Under the pieces are notes generated by a model, which did not search any database, had not been told where the DNA came from, and worked only from the letters and a program-made list of their open reading frames with translations. The position numbers and the translations under genes were made by a program. Source: Raineya orbicola (GTDB lineage: Bacteria > Bacteroidota > Bacteroidia > Cytophagales > Thermonemataceae). Taken from it: 59,507 nucleotides of DNA. The DNA is taken from NCBI RefSeq assembly GCF_002843425.1, contig NZ_NKXO01000023.1, forward strand, positions 1 to 59,507, in the 5' to 3' direction. Positions 22,654 to 29,764 of this stretch are shown here, piece after piece (position 1 is the stretch's first letter; every line of letters starts with the position of its first letter).

Positions 22654-25344
22654 ATGTTACGTATTGGTATTTTTTTTGGTGGGCAGTCGCGTGAGCGTGA
22701 AATAGCCTTCGCAGGTGGCAGAACCGTTTATGATAACCTCAATAAAGAGCTTTTTGAGCCTGTACCTATTTTTGTAGATAGTTTAGGTAATTTTATTTTG
22801 CTTGAATGGCAATACATTTACAAGGGTACTATTCGCGATTTTTACCCTCCTGCAAATTTTCAACCCAAAGAGTTTCAGATTTATATTGAATCTTTGCCCA
22901 AGCAAGATTTAAGTTACACCATTGGCAAAAAAATTGAACCTTCGGAGTTCAAGCAATATTTTGATGTAGCTTTTTTAGCTTTGCACGGCTTGCAAGGTGA
23001 AGACGGTGCTATTCAGGGGCTTTTGGAATGGTACGATATTCCTTACACAGGTTGCGGTATTTTACCTTCGGCAATTGGCACAAACAAAGCCGTACAAGCT
23101 GATTTGCTCGCTCAATATGGCTTCAAACGCCCTAAATATCTCACTTTAAGCAAAAAAGAGTATTTGCAAAATTTTTACAAAGGCGATATTTTAGAATGGC
23201 TTGTTGCCAAAATTGGCTTACCGATGGTTATCAAAGCCCCTAATCAAGGTTCATCTATTGGCATTTCTATTCTAAATGAAAAAGATAATCACGCTTTTCA
23301 CGAACTTATTTGCAAAGCCTTTTTTATAGAGGAAATTTCAGGGCGAAAGTGGAAAAACTTTTCTCGTGAGCAAAAATGGGCTTTTATTACCCGCCTCACT
23401 GATATTCGTGAAGGCATTGGTTTCCCTTTGGAATTACGCCTGATTGCTCAAAATCTTGATGGTTCTCGGCAAGAGTTAAACAATTTCGGAATTTTCTATC
23501 ACCCCGAAACGCTTTGGCAAAAACTTGATGAAATTCTTACAGAAAACCACTACAAAGCCCTGATGACTTCCACCAGTAGCGAGGAAAGTATTTTGATTGA
23601 ACGTTTCATCATTGGAAAAGAATTTTCTTGTATTGTCATAGAAGATGAAAATGGCGAGCCTTTGGCTTTACCACCTACGGAAATCATCAAAAGAAGCGAT
23701 ATTTTTGACTACCGAGCCAAGTATTTGCCCGGTATCAGCAGAAAAGTTACCCCTATTGAGTTGCCCACTGAACAGATTGAAGCTATCCGAAAAGAGTGTT
23801 GCAGACTTTTCAAAACTATTCACGCAAGCGTATATGCACGCATTGATGGATTTATCAATGCCTTGGGCGAAATCTACCTCAACGACCCCAACACAACTTC
23901 GGGAATGTTGCCCTCCTCTTTCTTTTTTCACCAAGCCGCCGAAATTGGCTTGAACCCCTCGCAGTTCCTGACTTATATTATTCGTACTTCCTTAGCGGCA
24001 AGAGCTAAAACACCTAAAAATAACTATTTCGTAAAAAAACTTTTAGAACATTTAGACCAAGCCATTCAGAGGCAACAAACCCAAACCCTACCCAAAACAC
24101 GCGTAGCCGTAATTATGGGGGGCTATTCATCAGAAAGGCATATTTCGGTAGAAAGTGGCAGAAATATTTACGAAAAATTAGCCTCTTCGGGGAAATATGA
24201 GCCTATTCCTGTATTTCTAACGGGCAATCCCGAAAAACACGAACTATATCTGCTTCCTATCAATATTATGCTTAAAGACAACGCCGATGATATTGCCAAA
24301 CAAGTACGAGAAAACAAAGCCCAAAAACAAGAAATTCTACTACAAATCAGACAGGAGGGCAAGGCTATTACACAAAAATATGCCCAAAACCCTATCTTTG
24401 AACCTCAGAAAATTACTTATGCCGACTTGAAAAATTTGGCAGATGTGGCGTTTATTGCTCTGCACGGCAGACCGGGCGAAGATGGAGCATTACAGCAAGA
24501 GCTTGAAAAAATTGGCTTACCTTACAATGGTTCAGGAGTAAAAAGCTCACAAATTACTATCAACAAGTACGAAACCAACGAAATTTTAGCTAAAAATGGC
24601 ATTTCAGTAGCTCGGCACGCTTTACTCTACAAGAAAGATTATTTTGCAAGCCCTGAAAAAGCTATTCAAACGATTGAAACTCAATTTTCGTATCCATTCA
24701 TTTGCAAGCCTGCTGATGATGGTTGTAGTTCGGCAGTGAAAAAAATCCGCAACCGAGAGCAACTACAAGCCTATATTGAGCAAACTTTTCGTCATCAGGA
24801 AACTATTTTGCCTTTGCAAGCTGAAACTTTACAACTCAAAGCAGGTGAAGAGTTTCCGCCAAGAGATTATTTCCTGATTGAAGAGCTTATCACCAAAGGG
24901 GAAGCCGAACATTTTTTAGAAATTACAGGTGGAATGCTTACACATCGTTTGCCTGATGGTTCAAGGCGTTATGAAGTTTTTGAGCCTTCCGAAACACTTG
25001 CCACAGGTGATGTACTTACTTTGGAAGAAAAATTTTTAGCGGGTGAAGGACAAAATATCACGCCTGCTCGTTTTTCTAAAAATCCTGCCGAACAAGAACG
25101 CATTTCAGCAGAAGTCAGAAAAACTCTGCAAAAAACTGCTGAAATTCTAAACGTAGAAGGTTATTGTCGTATTGATGCCTTTGTACGTGTGTATGCCAAT
25201 AGCAGAGTAGAAACCATTATTATTGAAGTTAATTCTTTGCCCGGTATGACACCCGCTACTTGTATCTTTCACCAAGCCGCCCTGAACAGCTATAAACCTT
25301 ATGAGTTTATTGATAAAATTTTGGAGTATGGAAAAAATAGCTAA
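22654..25344 (+). CDS. ddl: Double-length D-alanine--D-alanine ligase (two tandem ATP-grasp units), 896 aa
   Basis: Ddl joins two D-Ala for peptidoglycan synthesis. Usual enzymes have 300-370 residues; this one holds two complete copies. Copy 1 (about 1-455) has FFGGQSREREIAF, LHGLQGEDGAIQGLLE, NQGSSIGIS, YARIDGF and LNDPNTTSGMLPSS. Copy 2 (about 480-896) has IMGGYSSERHISVESG, LHGRPGEDGALQQELE, GYCRIDAF and the canonical IIEVNSLPGMTP. The metal-binding motif E-x-N is kept in copy 2 but reads D-P-N in copy 1, while the ATP loop G-S-S is better kept in copy 1. Both keep the FHQAA stretch near the end. The copies may share work, or one may be regulatory. Its 3' end overlaps the first methyltransferase gene by 17 bases. 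Confidence 0.88.
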   Translation: MLRIGIFFGGQSREREIAFAGGRTVYDNLNKELFEPVPIFVDSLGNFILLEWQYIYKGTIRDFYPPANFQPKEFQIYIESLPKQDLSYTIGKKIEPSEFKQYFDVAFLALHGLQGEDGAIQGLLEWYDIPYTGCGILPSAIGTNKAVQADLLAQYGFKRPKYLTLSKKEYLQNFYKGDILEWLVAKIGLPMVIKAPNQGSSIGISILNEKDNHAFHELICKAFFIEEISGRKWKNFSREQKWAFITRLTDIREGIGFPLELRLIAQNLDGSRQELNNFGIFYHPETLWQKLDEILTENHYKALMTSTSSEESILIERFIIGKEFSCIVIEDENGEPLALPPTEIIKRSDIFDYRAKYLPGISRKVTPIELPTEQIEAIRKECCRLFKTIHASVYARIDGFINALGEIYLNDPNTTSGMLPSSFFFHQAAEIGLNPSQFLTYIIRTSLAARAKTPKNNYFVKKLLEHLDQAIQRQQTQTLPKTRVAVIMGGYSSERHISVESGRNIYEKLASSGKYEPIPVFLTGNPEKHELYLLPINIMLKDNADDIAKQVRENKAQKQEILLQIRQEGKAITQKYAQNPIFEPQKITYADLKNLADVAFIALHGRPGEDGALQQELEKIGLPYNGSGVKSSQITINKYETNEILAKNGISVARHALLYKKDYFASPEKAIQTIETQFSYPFICKPADDGCSSAVKKIRNREQLQAYIEQTFRHQETILPLQAETLQLKAGEEFPPRDYFLIEELITKGEAEHFLEITGGMLTHRLPDGSRRYEVFEPSETLATGDVLTLEEKFLAGEGQNITPARFSKNPAEQERISAEVRKTLQKTAEILNVEGYCRIDAFVRVYANSRVETIIIEVNSLPGMTPATCIFHQAALNSYKPYEFIDKILEYGKNS

Positions 25345-26395
25345 TTTGTATAAATTTACATTAGATTTATTTCAAAATCACTCTTACAAAGGAATATCTC
25401 TGGAAAGCCGAAGATATATTGGCAACAAATTCAAACTTTCGGATTGGATATTTGAACATATCCAGAAACATACACAAAACTGCCAAAGTTTTTTTGATGT
25501 ATTCGCAGGAACAGGTATTTTAAGCAAAAAAGCTACCCTAATTTATCCCAAAATTATCATCAATGACCTTTTACACTCTAATTTTGTTATTTACAAGGCA
25601 TTTTTTGAAAAAGCCGATTGGGATTTTACTAAAATTGCAAGTATATTAAATTTCTATAACCAGCTTAACCCATTGCTACTTCCTGAAAATTATTTTTCAG
25701 AAAACTTTGGCAATAAATTTTTTGACTACCCAAATGCCAAAATTATTGGTTATATTCGTGAGGATTTAGAAAAACGCCGTAACGAGCTTAATACAAAAGA
25801 GTTTTACATACTATTGGCTACGCTCATTTACAATATAGATAAAATCGCCAACACCGTAGGGCATTTTGATGCATATATCAAAAAAAATATTCAACAACCA
25901 CAGCTACAACTCAAACTCATAGAGCAATGCCCACACCCCAATGTGGAAATTTACAAAGAAAATGCTAATGATTTAGTGCATAAAGTTCAAGCGGATATTG
26001 CCTACATAGACCCCCCCTACAACTCTCGGCAATATAATCGCTTTTATCACGTATATGAAAATTTAGTTGAATGGAAAAAACCTAAACTTTTTGGAATAGC
26101 TCTCAAACCTAAACCAGAAAATAATAGCTTATACTGCACAACCAAAGCAAAAATGGTTTTTGCTGACCTAATACAAAACCTAAAAGCTCGCTATATTGTA
26201 GTATCGTACAACAATACCTACAAATCTAAAAGCAGTTCATCTGCAAATAAAATCAAATTAGAAGAGATTTACGAAATTTTAAGCCAAAAAGGAGAAACAC
26301 AAGTTTTTGAAAAACCCTATAAATTTTTCAATGCAGGCAAAACAGAATTTAACGACCACCGAGAGTTTTTGTTTATTTCCCGAGTGGAAAAATGA
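25328..26395 (+). CDS. D12-class DNA adenine-N6 methyltransferase 1 of the restriction-modification operon, 355 aa
   Basis: This enzyme methylates adenine in the recognition site to protect host DNA. The S-adenosylmethionine motif is DVFAGTGILSKKA, preceded by RRYIGNKFKLSDWI. The catalytic motif is IAYIDPPYNSRQYNRFYHVYENL, with DPPY. The R-x-I-G-x-K opening and the NSRQY extension recall the subgroup that includes the FokI N-terminal and NlaIII enzymes; that is a recollection of family features, not a search. I used the ATG at 25328, which overlaps the end of ddl. The 3' end overlaps methyltransferase 2. Two methyltransferases in one operon usually mean an asymmetric site, one enzyme per strand. 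Confidence 0.85.
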   Translation: MEKIANLYKFTLDLFQNHSYKGISLESRRYIGNKFKLSDWIFEHIQKHTQNCQSFFDVFAGTGILSKKATLIYPKIIINDLLHSNFVIYKAFFEKADWDFTKIASILNFYNQLNPLLLPENYFSENFGNKFFDYPNAKIIGYIREDLEKRRNELNTKEFYILLATLIYNIDKIANTVGHFDAYIKKNIQQPQLQLKLIEQCPHPNVEIYKENANDLVHKVQADIAYIDPPYNSRQYNRFYHVYENLVEWKKPKLFGIALKPKPENNSLYCTTKAKMVFADLIQNLKARYIVVSYNNTYKSKSSSSANKIKLEEIYEILSQKGETQVFEKPYKFFNAGKTEFNDHREFLFISRVEK

Positions 26396-27296
26396 TAGTT
26401 TTGTACGTTCTCCTTTGTTTTATGTAGGGGATAAATACAAACTCTTGAAAGAAATAAAAAAATACTTTCCTTCGGAAATAAACAAATTCGTTGAGCCATT
26501 TGTAGGAGGCGGTTCAGTATTTTTGAATATAAAGGCTGAAAGTTATTATTTGAACGATATAGATAGCTATCTTATTCAAATTCATCAATTTCTTTGCAAG
26601 AAAGCCCATCACCCAGAGGTATTTTTCCAAGAAATTGAATTTTGGATAAAAAAATATGGGTTTTCTTGCTCTTTCAAGAAAGATATTGTCCCAAAAGAGC
26701 TAAAATTACAATATAAAAAAACGTATTATGCACATTTTAATAAAACCCCTTTTGAAAAGTTAAAAGCAGATTTCAACCAAAGCGAAAAAAGCGATATGCT
26801 TAAACTTTATCTACTCCTTATTTATGGCTTCAATAGAATGTTACGCTTTAATGCCAAAGGAGATTTTAATGTACCCGTAGGTAATGTAGATTTCAACAAA
26901 AACGTTTATCAGGCTTTGCAAAACTATTTTGAAGTAGTAAAAAACAAAAAAATAGAGTGGTTCAATCAGGATTACAGAAATTTTCTCAAAGAACTTTACC
27001 TGACTTCCCGAGATTTTATTTATTTAGACCCTCCATATCTTATTACATTCAGCGAATACAACAAACTATGGACACAAATCCAAGAAAAAGAACTTATCAA
27101 AACACTGAACGAACTTCATCAGAAAGGTTTGCGTTTTGCCGTTTCTAATGTAATCTCTTACAAGGGTAAAACAAATGAAGTTTTCAAAAAATGGGCAGAA
27201 AACTTTACTATCATTCCTATTAAAAGCAATTATATCAGCTACCACGACAATTCTCACAAAAAGTTTGAAGAAGTTTTAGTTTGTAATTACTTATGA
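26307..27296 (+). CDS. Dam/DpnII-like DNA adenine-N6 methyltransferase 2, up to 329 aa
   Basis: The motifs are VEPFVGGGSVFLN (S-adenosylmethionine binding) and FIYLDPPYLI (catalytic DPPY). Between them NRMLRFNAKGDFNVPVG resembles the target-recognition stretch of Dam and DpnII methyltransferases, which read GATC. This resemblance is from memory. The start is uncertain: ATG 26307 and ATG 26331 are the only in-frame ATGs before the conserved FYVGDKYKLL, and both lie inside gene 1, giving a 65-89 base overlap. The stop overlaps the endonuclease start (ATGA at 27293-27296). Translational coupling through the whole operon is likely. Confidence 0.85.
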   Translation: MKNPINFSMQAKQNLTTTESFCLFPEWKNDSFVRSPLFYVGDKYKLLKEIKKYFPSEINKFVEPFVGGGSVFLNIKAESYYLNDIDSYLIQIHQFLCKKAHHPEVFFQEIEFWIKKYGFSCSFKKDIVPKELKLQYKKTYYAHFNKTPFEKLKADFNQSEKSDMLKLYLLLIYGFNRMLRFNAKGDFNVPVGNVDFNKNVYQALQNYFEVVKNKKIEWFNQDYRNFLKELYLTSRDFIYLDPPYLITFSEYNKLWTQIQEKELIKTLNELHQKGLRFAVSNVISYKGKTNEVFKKWAENFTIIPIKSNYISYHDNSHKKFEEVLVCNYL

Positions 27297-28837
27297 AAAA
27301 ACAACGTTCCAATTATAAACCCTTGCTCTTTACAACTACTATTCGTAACCCTGAACGGCTGAAAGATTTTCTCAAGATTTTAGCCGAATACGAACAAGAG
27401 GTTCTAACAGATGAAATCGTTGAAAAAATTTCTAAAAAACTAATTCAAAAAGGTTTATATCAACCTACACGAGTCAGCTCTGAAATAAAGAAAAAATGGA
27501 AAAATAACGAAGATTTAACATTAAGCGAAGTAGAAAAAGTCTTTGCCGATAACCCCCAAAAGCATAAAGAGGCAGGATTTAGCAAAGGTTGGGCTTCAAG
27601 ATTTGATACTTGGTTCAAACTTGCCAAAGAATTAGGATTTGTATATTACGCTCTCAACGAAAAAATTATTTTTTCCCAAACTGGAAAAATGCTTTTAGAT
27701 ACCGAAAACCCAAGTAATGAAATTTTGGTCTTTGCAAATGCTTTTGCCAAATACCAAAGAAATAATCCTTTCCGAAAAGTATTAAATACCAATAAGCCTC
27801 TTATTTTGCTATTGCAGACTATCTTACTACTCAAAAACGATAAAGAACAAACCCAAGCAGGCATTACTCGCCAAGAAATTCCTCTACTACTTTGTTGGCA
27901 AAATGATAATGCTTCTGATTTATATCTGAAAATCAAAGAATTGAGGAATAATTATGGTTATACCCCAAGCAATGAAATAATTTTAGAAATTTGTGATAGG
28001 CTTCTTGATAGAATCAAAAGAGATGAAAAATCCATTTTGGTAGATTATACAGATGAATTTATACGTAAAATGCGTTTGACAGGGCTTATTAGCTTGCGTG
28101 GAGGGGGTAGATTCATAGATATCAATACCAAAGAAGAAAAAGCTATTGCTTATATTTTGAAAGAATATGCTCAAACAAAAAATTTTCATTCAGAGAAAGA
28201 TTTTTTTGAGTATATTGGTACAATAGACCACACACTTCTTGAGCAATTTACTTCTTACAGGCAAAAAGAAGTTACTCAAAAAAAAGATTTAGAAAAATGG
28301 CTCAATTACTTTTCTTGGGAAACTATTAAAAATGAAATGCTTTTGCTCGCCTATGGCAAAAATTCTAAAAATGAAATTTTACGCTTCATTGAAGCTTCTT
28401 TACGTTTGGAGTTCCTAACGACCCTATCTGTAATAAAGAAAATACCTCATCTAAACATTAAGCCCAATTATATCAGTGATGACGAAGGATTACCCACCTG
28501 CTTTGCCCCTGCAAACTTACCTGATATAGAATGTTATGAAAATGATAGAATTTTTCTTTTGGAAGTAACTCTCTTGAAGGGTGTAACACAACACATTCGC
28601 GAAAGTTACTCGGTACAGAGACATCTGGAAAGTTTTTTAGAGAAAAACTCAAAAACTTATAGTATTCTGATTTCTCCCAAAGCTCATATTGATACTTGTC
28701 GCCATTCAGCTTATATCAGGTCTCAATATGGTTATGAGGTGAGAGTTCTGGATATAGATTTATTCTTGGAACAGCTTGAAAATTTGAACACATTATACAA
28801 AGTGGCTTTTGATAAAACAAGTTGTGAAAACACCTAA
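27293..28837 (+). CDS. AlwI-family type II restriction endonuclease, 514 aa
   Basis: A DNA endonuclease that cuts unmethylated invading DNA. The N-terminus LLFTTTIRNPERLKDFL matches the opening I associate with the AlwI/BspD6I/PleI-type family (type IIS enzymes with short asymmetric sites such as GGATC or GAGTC). A candidate PD-(D/E)xK-like site lies near residues 415-435: LPDIECYENDRIFLLEVTL, with the acidic residues and E-V-T in place of E-x-K. The length fits. Its position directly after two adenine methyltransferases with overlapping ends supports the role. The exact site cannot be read from the protein; the scarcity of GATC in the window hints that GATC is part of it. Confidence 0.8.
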   Translation: MKKQRSNYKPLLFTTTIRNPERLKDFLKILAEYEQEVLTDEIVEKISKKLIQKGLYQPTRVSSEIKKKWKNNEDLTLSEVEKVFADNPQKHKEAGFSKGWASRFDTWFKLAKELGFVYYALNEKIIFSQTGKMLLDTENPSNEILVFANAFAKYQRNNPFRKVLNTNKPLILLLQTILLLKNDKEQTQAGITRQEIPLLLCWQNDNASDLYLKIKELRNNYGYTPSNEIILEICDRLLDRIKRDEKSILVDYTDEFIRKMRLTGLISLRGGGRFIDINTKEEKAIAYILKEYAQTKNFHSEKDFFEYIGTIDHTLLEQFTSYRQKEVTQKKDLEKWLNYFSWETIKNEMLLLAYGKNSKNEILRFIEASLRLEFLTTLSVIKKIPHLNIKPNYISDDEGLPTCFAPANLPDIECYENDRIFLLEVTLLKGVTQHIRESYSVQRHLESFLEKNSKTYSILISPKAHIDTCRHSAYIRSQYGYEVRVLDIDLFLEQLENLNTLYKVAFDKTSCENT

Positions 28838-28840
28838 TCT

Positions 28841-29764
28841 ATGCAAGGCATTGTTATTCGCTCCACAGGGGCTTGGTACGAAGTAAGAACAAACGATAAA
28901 AATATTATTTCTTGCCGTTTGCGTGGCAAATTCAAATTGCAAGATTTGAAGGTTACCAACCCTATTGCCGTAGGTGATAAAGTAGAATGGGAATGGGAAA
29001 AAGACCAAAAAACAGGCGTAATTACAGACATATTGCCTCGCGAAAATTACATCATTCGTAAGTCGGTACACAAAACTGCCCACGCACACCTCATTGCTAC
29101 CAATATTGACCAAGCCATCATTATTGCTACCCTTGTAGCCCCTCGTACATCTTTTGGCTTTATTGATAGATTTTTAGTTTCTGCCGAAACTTTCAGGATT
29201 CCTGCGGTAGTGGTTTTCAACAAAAGCGACCTTTTAGACCAAGAGGCTCTACGCTATCAGGCAGAAATTATGCAAATCTATACCGATATTGGATATACCT
29301 GCCTACAAACCTCTGTGCTTACCCAAGAAGGTATCCTTGACTTTGAAAAAATTTTGCAGGGCAAGGTTTCCTTACTTTCAGGGCATTCGGGGGTAGGCAA
29401 ATCCAGTCTTATCAATGCTATCAATCCTTCGCTAAATCTTAAAACAGGTGAAATTTCAGATTTTTCTCAAAAAGGAAAGCACACCACTACTTTTGCCGAA
29501 ATGTTTGAGCTTAGCGAAAATACTTTTATCATTGATACGCCCGGTATCAAAGAATTGGGGCTTGTAGAAATTGAGACAGACGAACTTTCACACTATTTCC
29601 CCGAAATGAGAAAGTATTTGGGTGAGTGTAAATTTGGCTCTCGCTGTTTGCATACACACGAACCCCACTGCAAGGTAATTGAAGCCGTTGAAAGTGGGGA
29701 AATTGCACTTTTCCGCTATGAAAGCTATTTGAGTATGCTTGCCAACGAAGATAATAGAAGGTGA
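28841..29764 (+). CDS. rsgA: Ribosome small-subunit-dependent GTPase RsgA, 307 aa
   Basis: A circularly permuted GTPase that releases late assembly factors from the 30S subunit. It has an N-terminal OB domain (1-75), then G motifs in permuted order: G4 NKSD at 127-130, G1 GHSGVGKS at 181-188 and G3 DTPG at 232-235. A C-terminal zinc knuckle follows with C263, C269, H271 and C277. It starts 3 bases after the endonuclease stop, so this housekeeping gene appears to be co-transcribed with the restriction-modification genes. That may reflect insertion of the system between ddl and rsgA. Confidence 0.96.
   Translation: MQGIVIRSTGAWYEVRTNDKNIISCRLRGKFKLQDLKVTNPIAVGDKVEWEWEKDQKTGVITDILPRENYIIRKSVHKTAHAHLIATNIDQAIIIATLVAPRTSFGFIDRFLVSAETFRIPAVVVFNKSDLLDQEALRYQAEIMQIYTDIGYTCLQTSVLTQEGILDFEKILQGKVSLLSGHSGVGKSSLINAINPSLNLKTGEISDFSQKGKHTTTFAEMFELSENTFIIDTPGIKELGLVEIETDELSHYFPEMRKYLGECKFGSRCLHTHEPHCKVIEAVESGEIALFRYESYLSMLANEDNRR

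What the first reader, a model, noticed from the sequence alone, without database searches (positions are those of the whole stretch)
25328..28837. Compact restriction-modification operon with two unlike D12 methyltransferases and an AlwI-like nuclease
Three genes overlap head to tail: methyltransferase 1 inside the end of ddl, methyltransferase 2 inside gene 1 by up to 89 bases, and the nuclease by ATGA. One methyltransferase has the R-Y-I-G-N-K/NSRQY style, the other is Dam-like. Two enzymes suggest an asymmetric site, each strand protected separately, but a Dam-like enzyme would already protect both strands of GATC. The pairing is odd and the recognition site is unknown.
Basis: partly seen in the sequence, partly recalled or inferred. 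Interest (0 to 1): 0.65.

Follow-up and report, generated by a model that had tools for sequence, protein, structure and literature searches.

The report
Ordinary AlwI-type two-methyltransferase restriction system
Three overlapping genes make a standard DNA-cutting defence system whose cutter reads an asymmetric site and whose two methylating enzymes most likely each protect one strand; the layout is already described, and what is added here is a guess at the site it reads.

Summary
In detail: three overlapping genes at 25328-28837 encode two D12-class adenine methyltransferases (M1; Dam-like M2) and an AlwI-family (PF09491) endonuclease. [quoted passage not shown] is well supported; "odd pairing" is not. 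M1 and M2 relatives occur on 17 of the 18 plasmid records that match the nuclease, and papers describe AlwI-family systems with two methyltransferases, for GGATC/GATCC or GATGC/GCATC. A Dam-like fold need not mean palindromic GATC methylation. The nuclease matches BspD6I by profile and fold and keeps the residues aligned with its E418 and D456. The cassette lies between ddl and rsgA, is shared with one congener, and is absent from a closer one whose ddl-rsgA junction is empty. Site: in a scan of 468 pentamers, CCATC/GATGG shows the widest gap between 4 partly sampled genomes that carry the nuclease group (observed/expected 0.53-0.72) and 10 control sets (0.81-0.96). This makes it the best guess (about 0.5); other comparisons are weaker and are told. 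New member of a known kind; low interest.

The parts
25328..26395 (+). M1: D12-class (PF02086) adenine-N6 DNA methyltransferase, 355 aa, motif DPPYNSRQY; predicted to methylate one strand of the site (best guess CCATC)
   Evidence: strand assignment inferred
26331..27296 (+). M2: Dam-family (TIGR00571) adenine-N6 DNA methyltransferase, 321 aa from ATG 26331 (TTG 26307 also possible), motif DPPYLITFS; predicted to methylate the other strand (best guess GATGG)
   Evidence: strand assignment inferred
27293..28837 (+). R: AlwI-family (PF09491) Type IIS restriction endonuclease, 514 aa
28409..28624 (+). Nuclease catalytic stretch of R, residues 373-444: E373, D411, E424, E437, H444 invariant in 11 aligned sequences (window included); E373 and D411 align with BspD6I E418 and D456
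   Evidence: PDB titles name the E418A and D456A mutants
25328..25344 (+). 17-base overlap of M1 with the end of the double ddl gene (22654-25344): left edge of the inserted cassette
   Evidence: in congener G296 the ddl stop is followed after 6 bases by the rsgA start

Best explanation
A Type IIS restriction-modification system of the AlwI family. The nuclease (N-terminal recognition part, C-terminal nuclease domain like BspD6I's) binds a short asymmetric site and cuts a few bases to one side, probably by dimerising because no small-subunit gene accompanies it. M1 and M2 each methylate the adenine of one strand of that site, so both are needed for full protection; M2 is Dam-like in fold but recognises a non-palindromic target. 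Best guess for the site: 5'-CCATC-3'/5'-GATGG-3' (about 0.5), M2 taking GATGG and M1 CCATC. Shown here: family membership, intact genes, retained catalytic residues, recurrent three-gene set, position between ddl and rsgA. Inferred: methylation activity, division of strands, dimer cleavage, site. The confidence below is for the system, not for the site.
For: PF02086 twice and PF09491; Dam-family cut-off passed by M2; nearly full-length PADLOC matches; BspD6I by single-sequence search 1.6e-8, by profile 1.1e-32 over profile positions 107-511 of 520, by fold 7.2e-16 and Z 20.0, rmsd 8.5 over 399; catalytic residues invariant in 11 aligned sequences. M1 and M2 relatives on 17 of 18 plasmid records that match the nuclease, adjacent in five annotated loci. 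Published AlwI-family systems have two m6A methyltransferases for the two strands: AlwI (PMC4081073 section 34), Caldicellulosiruptor GATGC/GCATC (PMC9799307), S. xylosus GCATC/GATGC with m6A on both strands in E. coli (PMC10030836). Site: CCATC/GATGG observed/expected 0.72, 0.53, 0.70, 0.71 in four genomes whose nucleases fall in one clade with the window's (100/100 support), against 0.81-0.96 in ten control sets; first of 468 pentamers by gap; 6 of 1001 ways to pick 4 of the 14 sets, the true one included, give some pentamer with as large a gap.
Against: No methylome or enzyme assay. Site: depletion in the window's own genome against its closest system-free congener is weak (0.72 against 0.81; rank 28 of 494), though first of 489 for G298 against the same congener; by mean difference CCATC ranks only 10 of 468, behind among others GGATG at 4; G000 and G298 are one lineage, the four samples are partial (189-460 kb), and other systems of those genomes could cause the depletion. 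One control, the E. faecium plasmid, itself carries a relative of M1 fused with a Dam-family enzyme. M2's run FNRMLRFN resembles the FSNMIRIN of the solved Dam 1yfj more than the FNNQIRFN of the S. aureus type, which could be read in favour of a GATC core; GATC is strongly depleted in all four carriers (0.04-0.29), but also in both system-free congeners (0.10, 0.23), less so than in the two congeneric carriers (0.05, 0.04).
Confidence: 0.9

Rival explanations
1. Same kind of system, but the site is GGATC/GATCC as for AlwI itself, M1 and M2 each taking one strand of a GATC-containing site.
For: M2 passes the Dam-family cut-off; its run FNRMLRFN resembles that of the solved Dam 1yfj more than the FNNQIRFN of the S. 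aureus type does (that this run belongs to Dam's recognition loop is recalled); GATC is depleted in all four carriers, and more in G000 and G298 (0.05, 0.04) than in the congeners without the system (0.10, 0.23); AlwI itself uses two methyltransferases for GGATC (PMC4081073 section 34).
Against: Among GATC sites GGATC is not under-represented in three of the four carriers (1.55, 2.19, 1.58; 0.68 in the Eubacterium), and GATC is rare in congeners without the system too. GGATC could not be scored in the 468-pentamer scan because its expectation was too low.
Confidence: 0.15
2. Same kind of system, but the site is GATGC/GCATC as in the characterised Caldicellulosiruptor and S. xylosus systems.
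For: Besides AlwI these are the AlwI-family systems with measured sites that my paper searches showed; M1 and M2 of the S. aureus plasmid locus, whose gene sizes (2133 and 2106 nt) resemble the S. xylosus ones (2127 and 2121 nt, PMC10030836), are homologues of the window's (43% and 32%).
Against: The window's nuclease (514 aa) falls in a clade of ten (100/100) apart from the S. aureus type (701 aa; clade of five, 100/100). GATGC is little depleted (0.92, 0.87, 1.00, 0.85) and overlaps the controls (0.90-1.09). The S. xylosus and Caldicellulosiruptor proteins themselves were not at hand.
Confidence: 0.15
3. The genes are intact but the operon is no longer an active restriction system, kept only for methylation or drifting.
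For: Some relatives are broken or incomplete: G433's nuclease has 3 internal stops, and no M2 was found at G383's locus, which lies near a contig end; G296 lacks the cassette.
Against: All three window genes are open with motifs and catalytic residues intact; G298 keeps all three open at 69-76% identity in the same place.
Confidence: 0.1

Closest known systems
AlwI restriction-modification system (GGATC 4/5; two methyltransferases fused)
   Same: Nuclease family PF09491; two methyltransferases for one asymmetric site (PMC4081073, section 34 read)
   Different: Methyltransferases are separate genes here; site probably differs; the AlwI protein itself was not at hand for direct comparison
AlwI-family GATGC/GCATC systems: R/M1/M2.Cal02329 (PMC9799307) and S. 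xylosus JGY90_00145/00150 (PMC10030836)
   Same: AlwI-family nuclease with two m6A activities for the two strands
   Different: S. xylosus nuclease about 700 aa by gene length and methyltransferase a single gene; motif depletion does not favour GATGC here
AlwI-type plasmid loci of S. epidermidis, H. suis, E. faecalis, L. lactis, Leuconostoc
   Same: Same three proteins: nuclease 28-38%, M1 45-53%, M2 44-51% identical; nucleases in one clade with the window's, 100/100
   Different: H. suis order is M2-R-M1; some M1 carry an N-terminal extension; I found no measured site for them
HpyC1I of Helicobacter pylori (CCATC 4/5)
   Same: Predicted site; m6A at CCATC measured in H. pylori UM032 and assigned to the Type IIS enzyme M1.HpyUM032X (PMC4450513, PMC3849833, passages)
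   Different: Sequence kinship not tested: no HpyC1I sequence was at hand. BccI, recalled, has the same site
BspD6I / BstNBI (GAGTC)
   Same: Fold and catalytic residues of the large subunit
   Different: No separate small subunit beside the window's nuclease, so not of the heterodimer layout

Membership tests
AlwI family (PF09491) Type IIS endonuclease | Match to PF09491 above its gathering score | tested here: met
   119.1 bits against 23.1, in two stretches
AlwI family (PF09491) Type IIS endonuclease | Catalytic residues and fold of the BspD6I type | tested here: met
   E373, D411, E424, E437, H444 invariant in 11 aligned sequences; E373 and D411 align with E418 and D456; fold match Z 20.0 with rmsd 8.5 over 399, small subunit Z 18.9 with rmsd 2.5 over 161 (model mean pLDDT 71.1, pTM 0.42)
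AlwI family (PF09491) Type IIS endonuclease | Cleavage at a fixed distance outside an asymmetric site | not testable with these tools
   needs purified enzyme and run-off sequencing
Two-methyltransferase Type IIS restriction-modification system | Two DNA methyltransferase genes with catalytic motifs in one operon with the nuclease | tested here: met
   DPPY in both, genes overlap; co-transcription itself not testable
Two-methyltransferase Type IIS restriction-modification system | Each methyltransferase modifies one strand of the same site | not testable with these tools
   needs modification calling
Dam family (TIGR00571) for M2 | Match above the curated cut-off | tested here: met
   145.4 against 114.85 bits
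Dam family (TIGR00571) for M2 | Methylates palindromic GATC | not testable with these tools
   indirect evidence leans elsewhere but does not exclude it
BspD6I/BstNBI heterodimer | Separate small catalytic subunit | tested here: not met
   rsgA follows the nuclease after 3 bases; the genome's only other PF09491 matches are on C9, one nuclease and a 107-aa frame at its end; a strongly diverged subunit elsewhere could be missed

The most novel reading that the evidence does not exclude
The short-nuclease clade of AlwI-family systems (ten rows here: the window and G298, a Treponemataceae and a Eubacterium MAG, G383, and plasmids of Staphylococcus, Helicobacter, Leuconostoc, Lactococcus and Enterococcus) recognises CCATC/GATGG, so that the Dam-family enzyme of these operons is a strand-specific GATGG methylase and not a GATC methylase; genes named 'Dam family' beside an AlwI nuclease would then be misleading as to function.
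Probability: 0.4. Interest if true: 0.35.

Novelty: new member of a known kind. Interest (0 to 1): 0.2.

Why it matters
It removes a false puzzle: a Dam-like methyltransferase next to an AlwI-type nuclease is normal and need not mean GATC methylation. It gives a testable site and shows that, in genomes with strong site avoidance, comparing carriers with non-carriers can suggest the target of an unassayed restriction system.

Tried and rejected
Rejected: Dam-type GATC orphan plus unrelated second methyltransferase (the three-gene set recurs as a unit). Rejected: heterodimeric nickase layout (no small-subunit gene found). Rejected: nuclease outside restriction enzymes.

Led nowhere: phage records (no match); a paper giving Dam recognition residues; PDB relatives of M1 by sequence (none at E 0.1); methylome paper on M. 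hominis (PMC10305163, passages, nothing used); promoter and terminator scan of 25000-29000 (17 promoter-like sites against 15.2 expected, 1 terminator-like against 2.6). Viral and metagenome collections were not searched. The genome's other systems explain avoidance only in part: among the four congeners G000 alone has the C15 nuclease and a close relative of the C17 methyltransferase, and it has the lowest GGATG and CATG, but GAGTC is as depleted in G296, which has no C9 relative.

Mended on the way: the first avoidance script stopped with an error after printing most results and was rerun corrected. The first tree of nucleases misread four reverse-strand rows (L009, L014, L019, L021); it was rebuilt with all 22 rows read in their own strand, and only that tree is used.

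Limits of the depletion test: of the ten control sets, G296 and G297 were searched for the nuclease and lack it. The six plasmid-collection controls are not among the 18 plasmid records that match it, but the rest of their genomes was not searched; the E. faecium record carries a relative of M1 fused with a Dam-family enzyme, and the A. baumannii record a distant M1 match (26%). The E. coli control was not searched. The mixed Bacteroidota set comes in part from loci that hold other AlwI-family nucleases. The 17 of 18 plasmid records include near-identical ones (four Apilactobacillus, three E. faecalis), two have only a part of the nuclease (CP102073 64%, CP069956 10%), and for M1 and M2 only listed rows were seen.
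Full report
WHAT IS THERE. The three ORFs are intact and overlap as described. M1 (25328-26395) and M2 (to 27296) both match PF02086, the nuclease (27293-28837) matches PF09491 RE_AlwI. M2 also passes the Dam-family model TIGR00571; M1 is not listed for it. For M2 the ATG at 26331 is kept in the congener G298, so a 65-base overlap is likelier than the 89-base one from TTG 26307. PADLOC's models match all three nearly end to end: M1 at 432 bits, M2 at 347, nuclease at 409.

THE NUCLEASE. Single-sequence search at E up to 1 finds only BspD6I chains in the PDB (best 1.6e-8); a profile of 11 sequences aligns its positions 107-511 of 520 with the large subunit (1.1e-32) and also finds the small one (1.9e-16). 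An AlphaFold model from six rows (mean pLDDT 71.1, pTM 0.42; 14 of the 17 ten-residue blocks from 331 to 500 above 80) has the BspD6I large subunit as best match by Foldseek (7.2e-16), then the small subunit and FokI; VIA-align gives Z 20.0 (rmsd 8.5 over 399) and Z 18.9 (rmsd 2.5 over 161). E373, D411, E424, E437 and H444 are invariant in the 11 aligned sequences, window included. By the alignment (ungapped there, offset 51; that chain has six residues more than 6qnz_A) E373 and D411 fall on E418 and D456, the residues mutated in PDB entries 6qnz and 5lhc.

THE PAIRING IS NORMAL. Of the 18 plasmid records that match the nuclease, 17 also show both an M1 and an M2 relative among the rows listed; the exception, NZ_CP079952, has only a 21% nuclease match. 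The 17 include near-identical records. Five annotated loci show the genes side by side: M1-M2-R in S. epidermidis, L. lactis, Leuconostoc and E. faecalis, M2-R-M1 in H. suis. Three further loci, found through M1 or M2, have the two methyltransferases fused, with an AlwI-family nuclease of 651-701 aa as the next gene (lengths), and a Lactococcus locus has them separate beside one of 643 aa. A Treponemataceae and a Eubacterium MAG hold the whole set at 41-57% identity. In print: the Type II review says that AlwI itself has two methyltransferases in one chain, one for GGATC and one for GATCC, although Dam would protect both, and offers a cost argument (PMC4081073, section 34 read, other passages). 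A Caldicellulosiruptor AlwI-family system has two methyltransferases for GATGC and GCATC (PMC9799307, abstract, sections 17 and 18, passages). An S. xylosus AlwI-family nuclease goes with one long methyltransferase gene that gives m6A at GATGC and GCATC in E. coli (PMC10030836, passages). A 2026 paper states that, in its trees, AlwI-family nucleases always went with a fused DNA adenine methylase and Dam, or, in M. agalactiae, the two apart (PMC12898733, abstract, section 5, part 1 of section 12, passages). MmyCIII, named GCATC-recognising, is in an alignment of AlwI-related proteins (PMC4807054, passages; the name also in PMC3120828, one passage).

CLADE. In a tree of 22 nucleases the window's lies in a clade of ten with 100/100 support: G298, the Treponemataceae and Eubacterium MAGs, G383, and the plasmid nucleases of S. 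epidermidis, H. suis, Leuconostoc, L. lactis and E. faecalis. The long nucleases (S. aureus, E. faecium, Priestia, Lactococcus 634, and one Bacteroidota row) form another with 100/100 support. The genome's second AlwI-family nuclease (C9) lies outside both.

PLACE AND HISTORY. In the congener G296 (rsgA 91% identical) the ddl stop is followed after 6 bases by the rsgA start, without the cassette; in G298 (rsgA 86%) the same cassette sits in the same place, M1 76%, M2 69%, nuclease 73% identical. The third congener, G297, has no nuclease match and no ddl within the 8 kb taken around its rsgA. In both carriers the ddl tail differs from G296's. So the cassette was inserted at the end of ddl; by these identities it was either lost in G296 or gained twice. 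Among 148 genomes searched, G000 included, 8 match the nuclease, and apart from G000 and G298 only two match strongly: G433, whose copy has three internal stops, and G383.

WHICH SITE. I counted pentamers on both strands against a third-order expectation, in samples of 459,507 bases (G000, window included), 195,686 (G298), 211,655 (the Treponemataceae MAG) and 189,264 (the Eubacterium MAG), all carriers, and in ten control sets: G296, G297, Prevotella, Acetoanaerobium, Bacteroides finegoldii, Bacillus velezensis, E. coli, A. baumannii, E. faecium and a mix of Bacteroidota loci (limits of the controls are told under Tried and rejected). CCATC/GATGG is at 0.72, 0.53, 0.70 and 0.71 in carriers and 0.81-0.96 in controls. 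Over the 468 pentamers with enough expectation it has the largest gap between the highest carrier and the lowest control, though it ranks only 10th by mean difference, with GGATG 4th. Of the 1001 ways to of the 14 sets carriers, 6, the true one included, give some pentamer with as large a gap. With the two MAGs alone it ranks 2 of 468, with the two congeners alone 4 of 468. Pairwise: G298 against G296 first of 489, against G297 6th of 484; G000 against G296 28th of 494, against G297 23rd of 487. GATGC and GGATG do not separate the groups. GGATC could not be scored in the scan; within GATC sites it is not depleted in three of four carriers, but GATC as a whole is very rare in all four and somewhat less rare in G296 and G297. 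CCATC (4/5) is the site listed for HpyC1I (PMC3849833, passage), and m6A at CCATC was measured in H. pylori UM032 (PMC4450513, passage); that HpyC1I or BccI belong to this nuclease clade is a guess, not tested.

MECHANISM. Most likely the nuclease reads an asymmetric site through its N-terminal part and cuts to one side as a transient dimer, as Type IIS enzymes are held to do (PMC4081073, section 34), while M1 and M2 protect one strand each. The Dam-like M2 would then act on GATGG, M1 on CCATC. The system-level claim is firm (0.9); the site is a guess supported by depletion only (about 0.5).

VERDICT. A real, intact, ordinary member of a described kind. The one addition is the predicted site.

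Noticed in passing
G000 sample of 459,507 bases (loci L070-L089 and the window): Extreme avoidance of short palindromes: observed/expected GGCC 0.01, GCGC 0.01, CATG 0.012, GATC 0.05, TCGA 0.08, CTAG 0.11, hinting at many past or present restriction systems.
   Followed up: partly
L059:5021-8392 (G000 contig C15): A second pair of D12 methyltransferases (the first resembles M2, the second M1) followed by a 462-aa protein without Pfam match; that protein has no match in the three congeners, while GGATG is lowest in G000 (0.16).
   Followed up: partly
L060:2905-4742 (G000 contig C17): A single D12 methyltransferase overlapping a 281-aa protein without Pfam match; in the three congeners its only match is G298's M1 (33%), while CATG is nearly absent in G000.
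   Followed up: partly
L058:3266-6557 (G000 contig C9): A second AlwI-family nuclease, here with two PF01555 methyltransferases; in the tree it pairs with a Bacteroidota nuclease (L014) outside the window's clade.
   Followed up: partly
window 22654-25344: The ddl gene is a double D-alanine-D-alanine ligase of 896 aa with two N-terminal domain matches.
   Followed up: no
L027:3715-5091 and L066:4354-6456: M1 relatives with an N-terminal helix-turn-helix domain (HTH_3 in the Treponemataceae MAG, HTH_17 in the fused E. faecium enzyme), possibly for self-regulation; the window's M1 shows no such Pfam match.
   Followed up: partly
L047 (G433) and L048 (G383): Degraded or incomplete relatives: G433's nuclease has three internal stops and only a piece of M1 lies at the locus edge; no M2 was found at G383's locus, near a contig end.
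   Followed up: no
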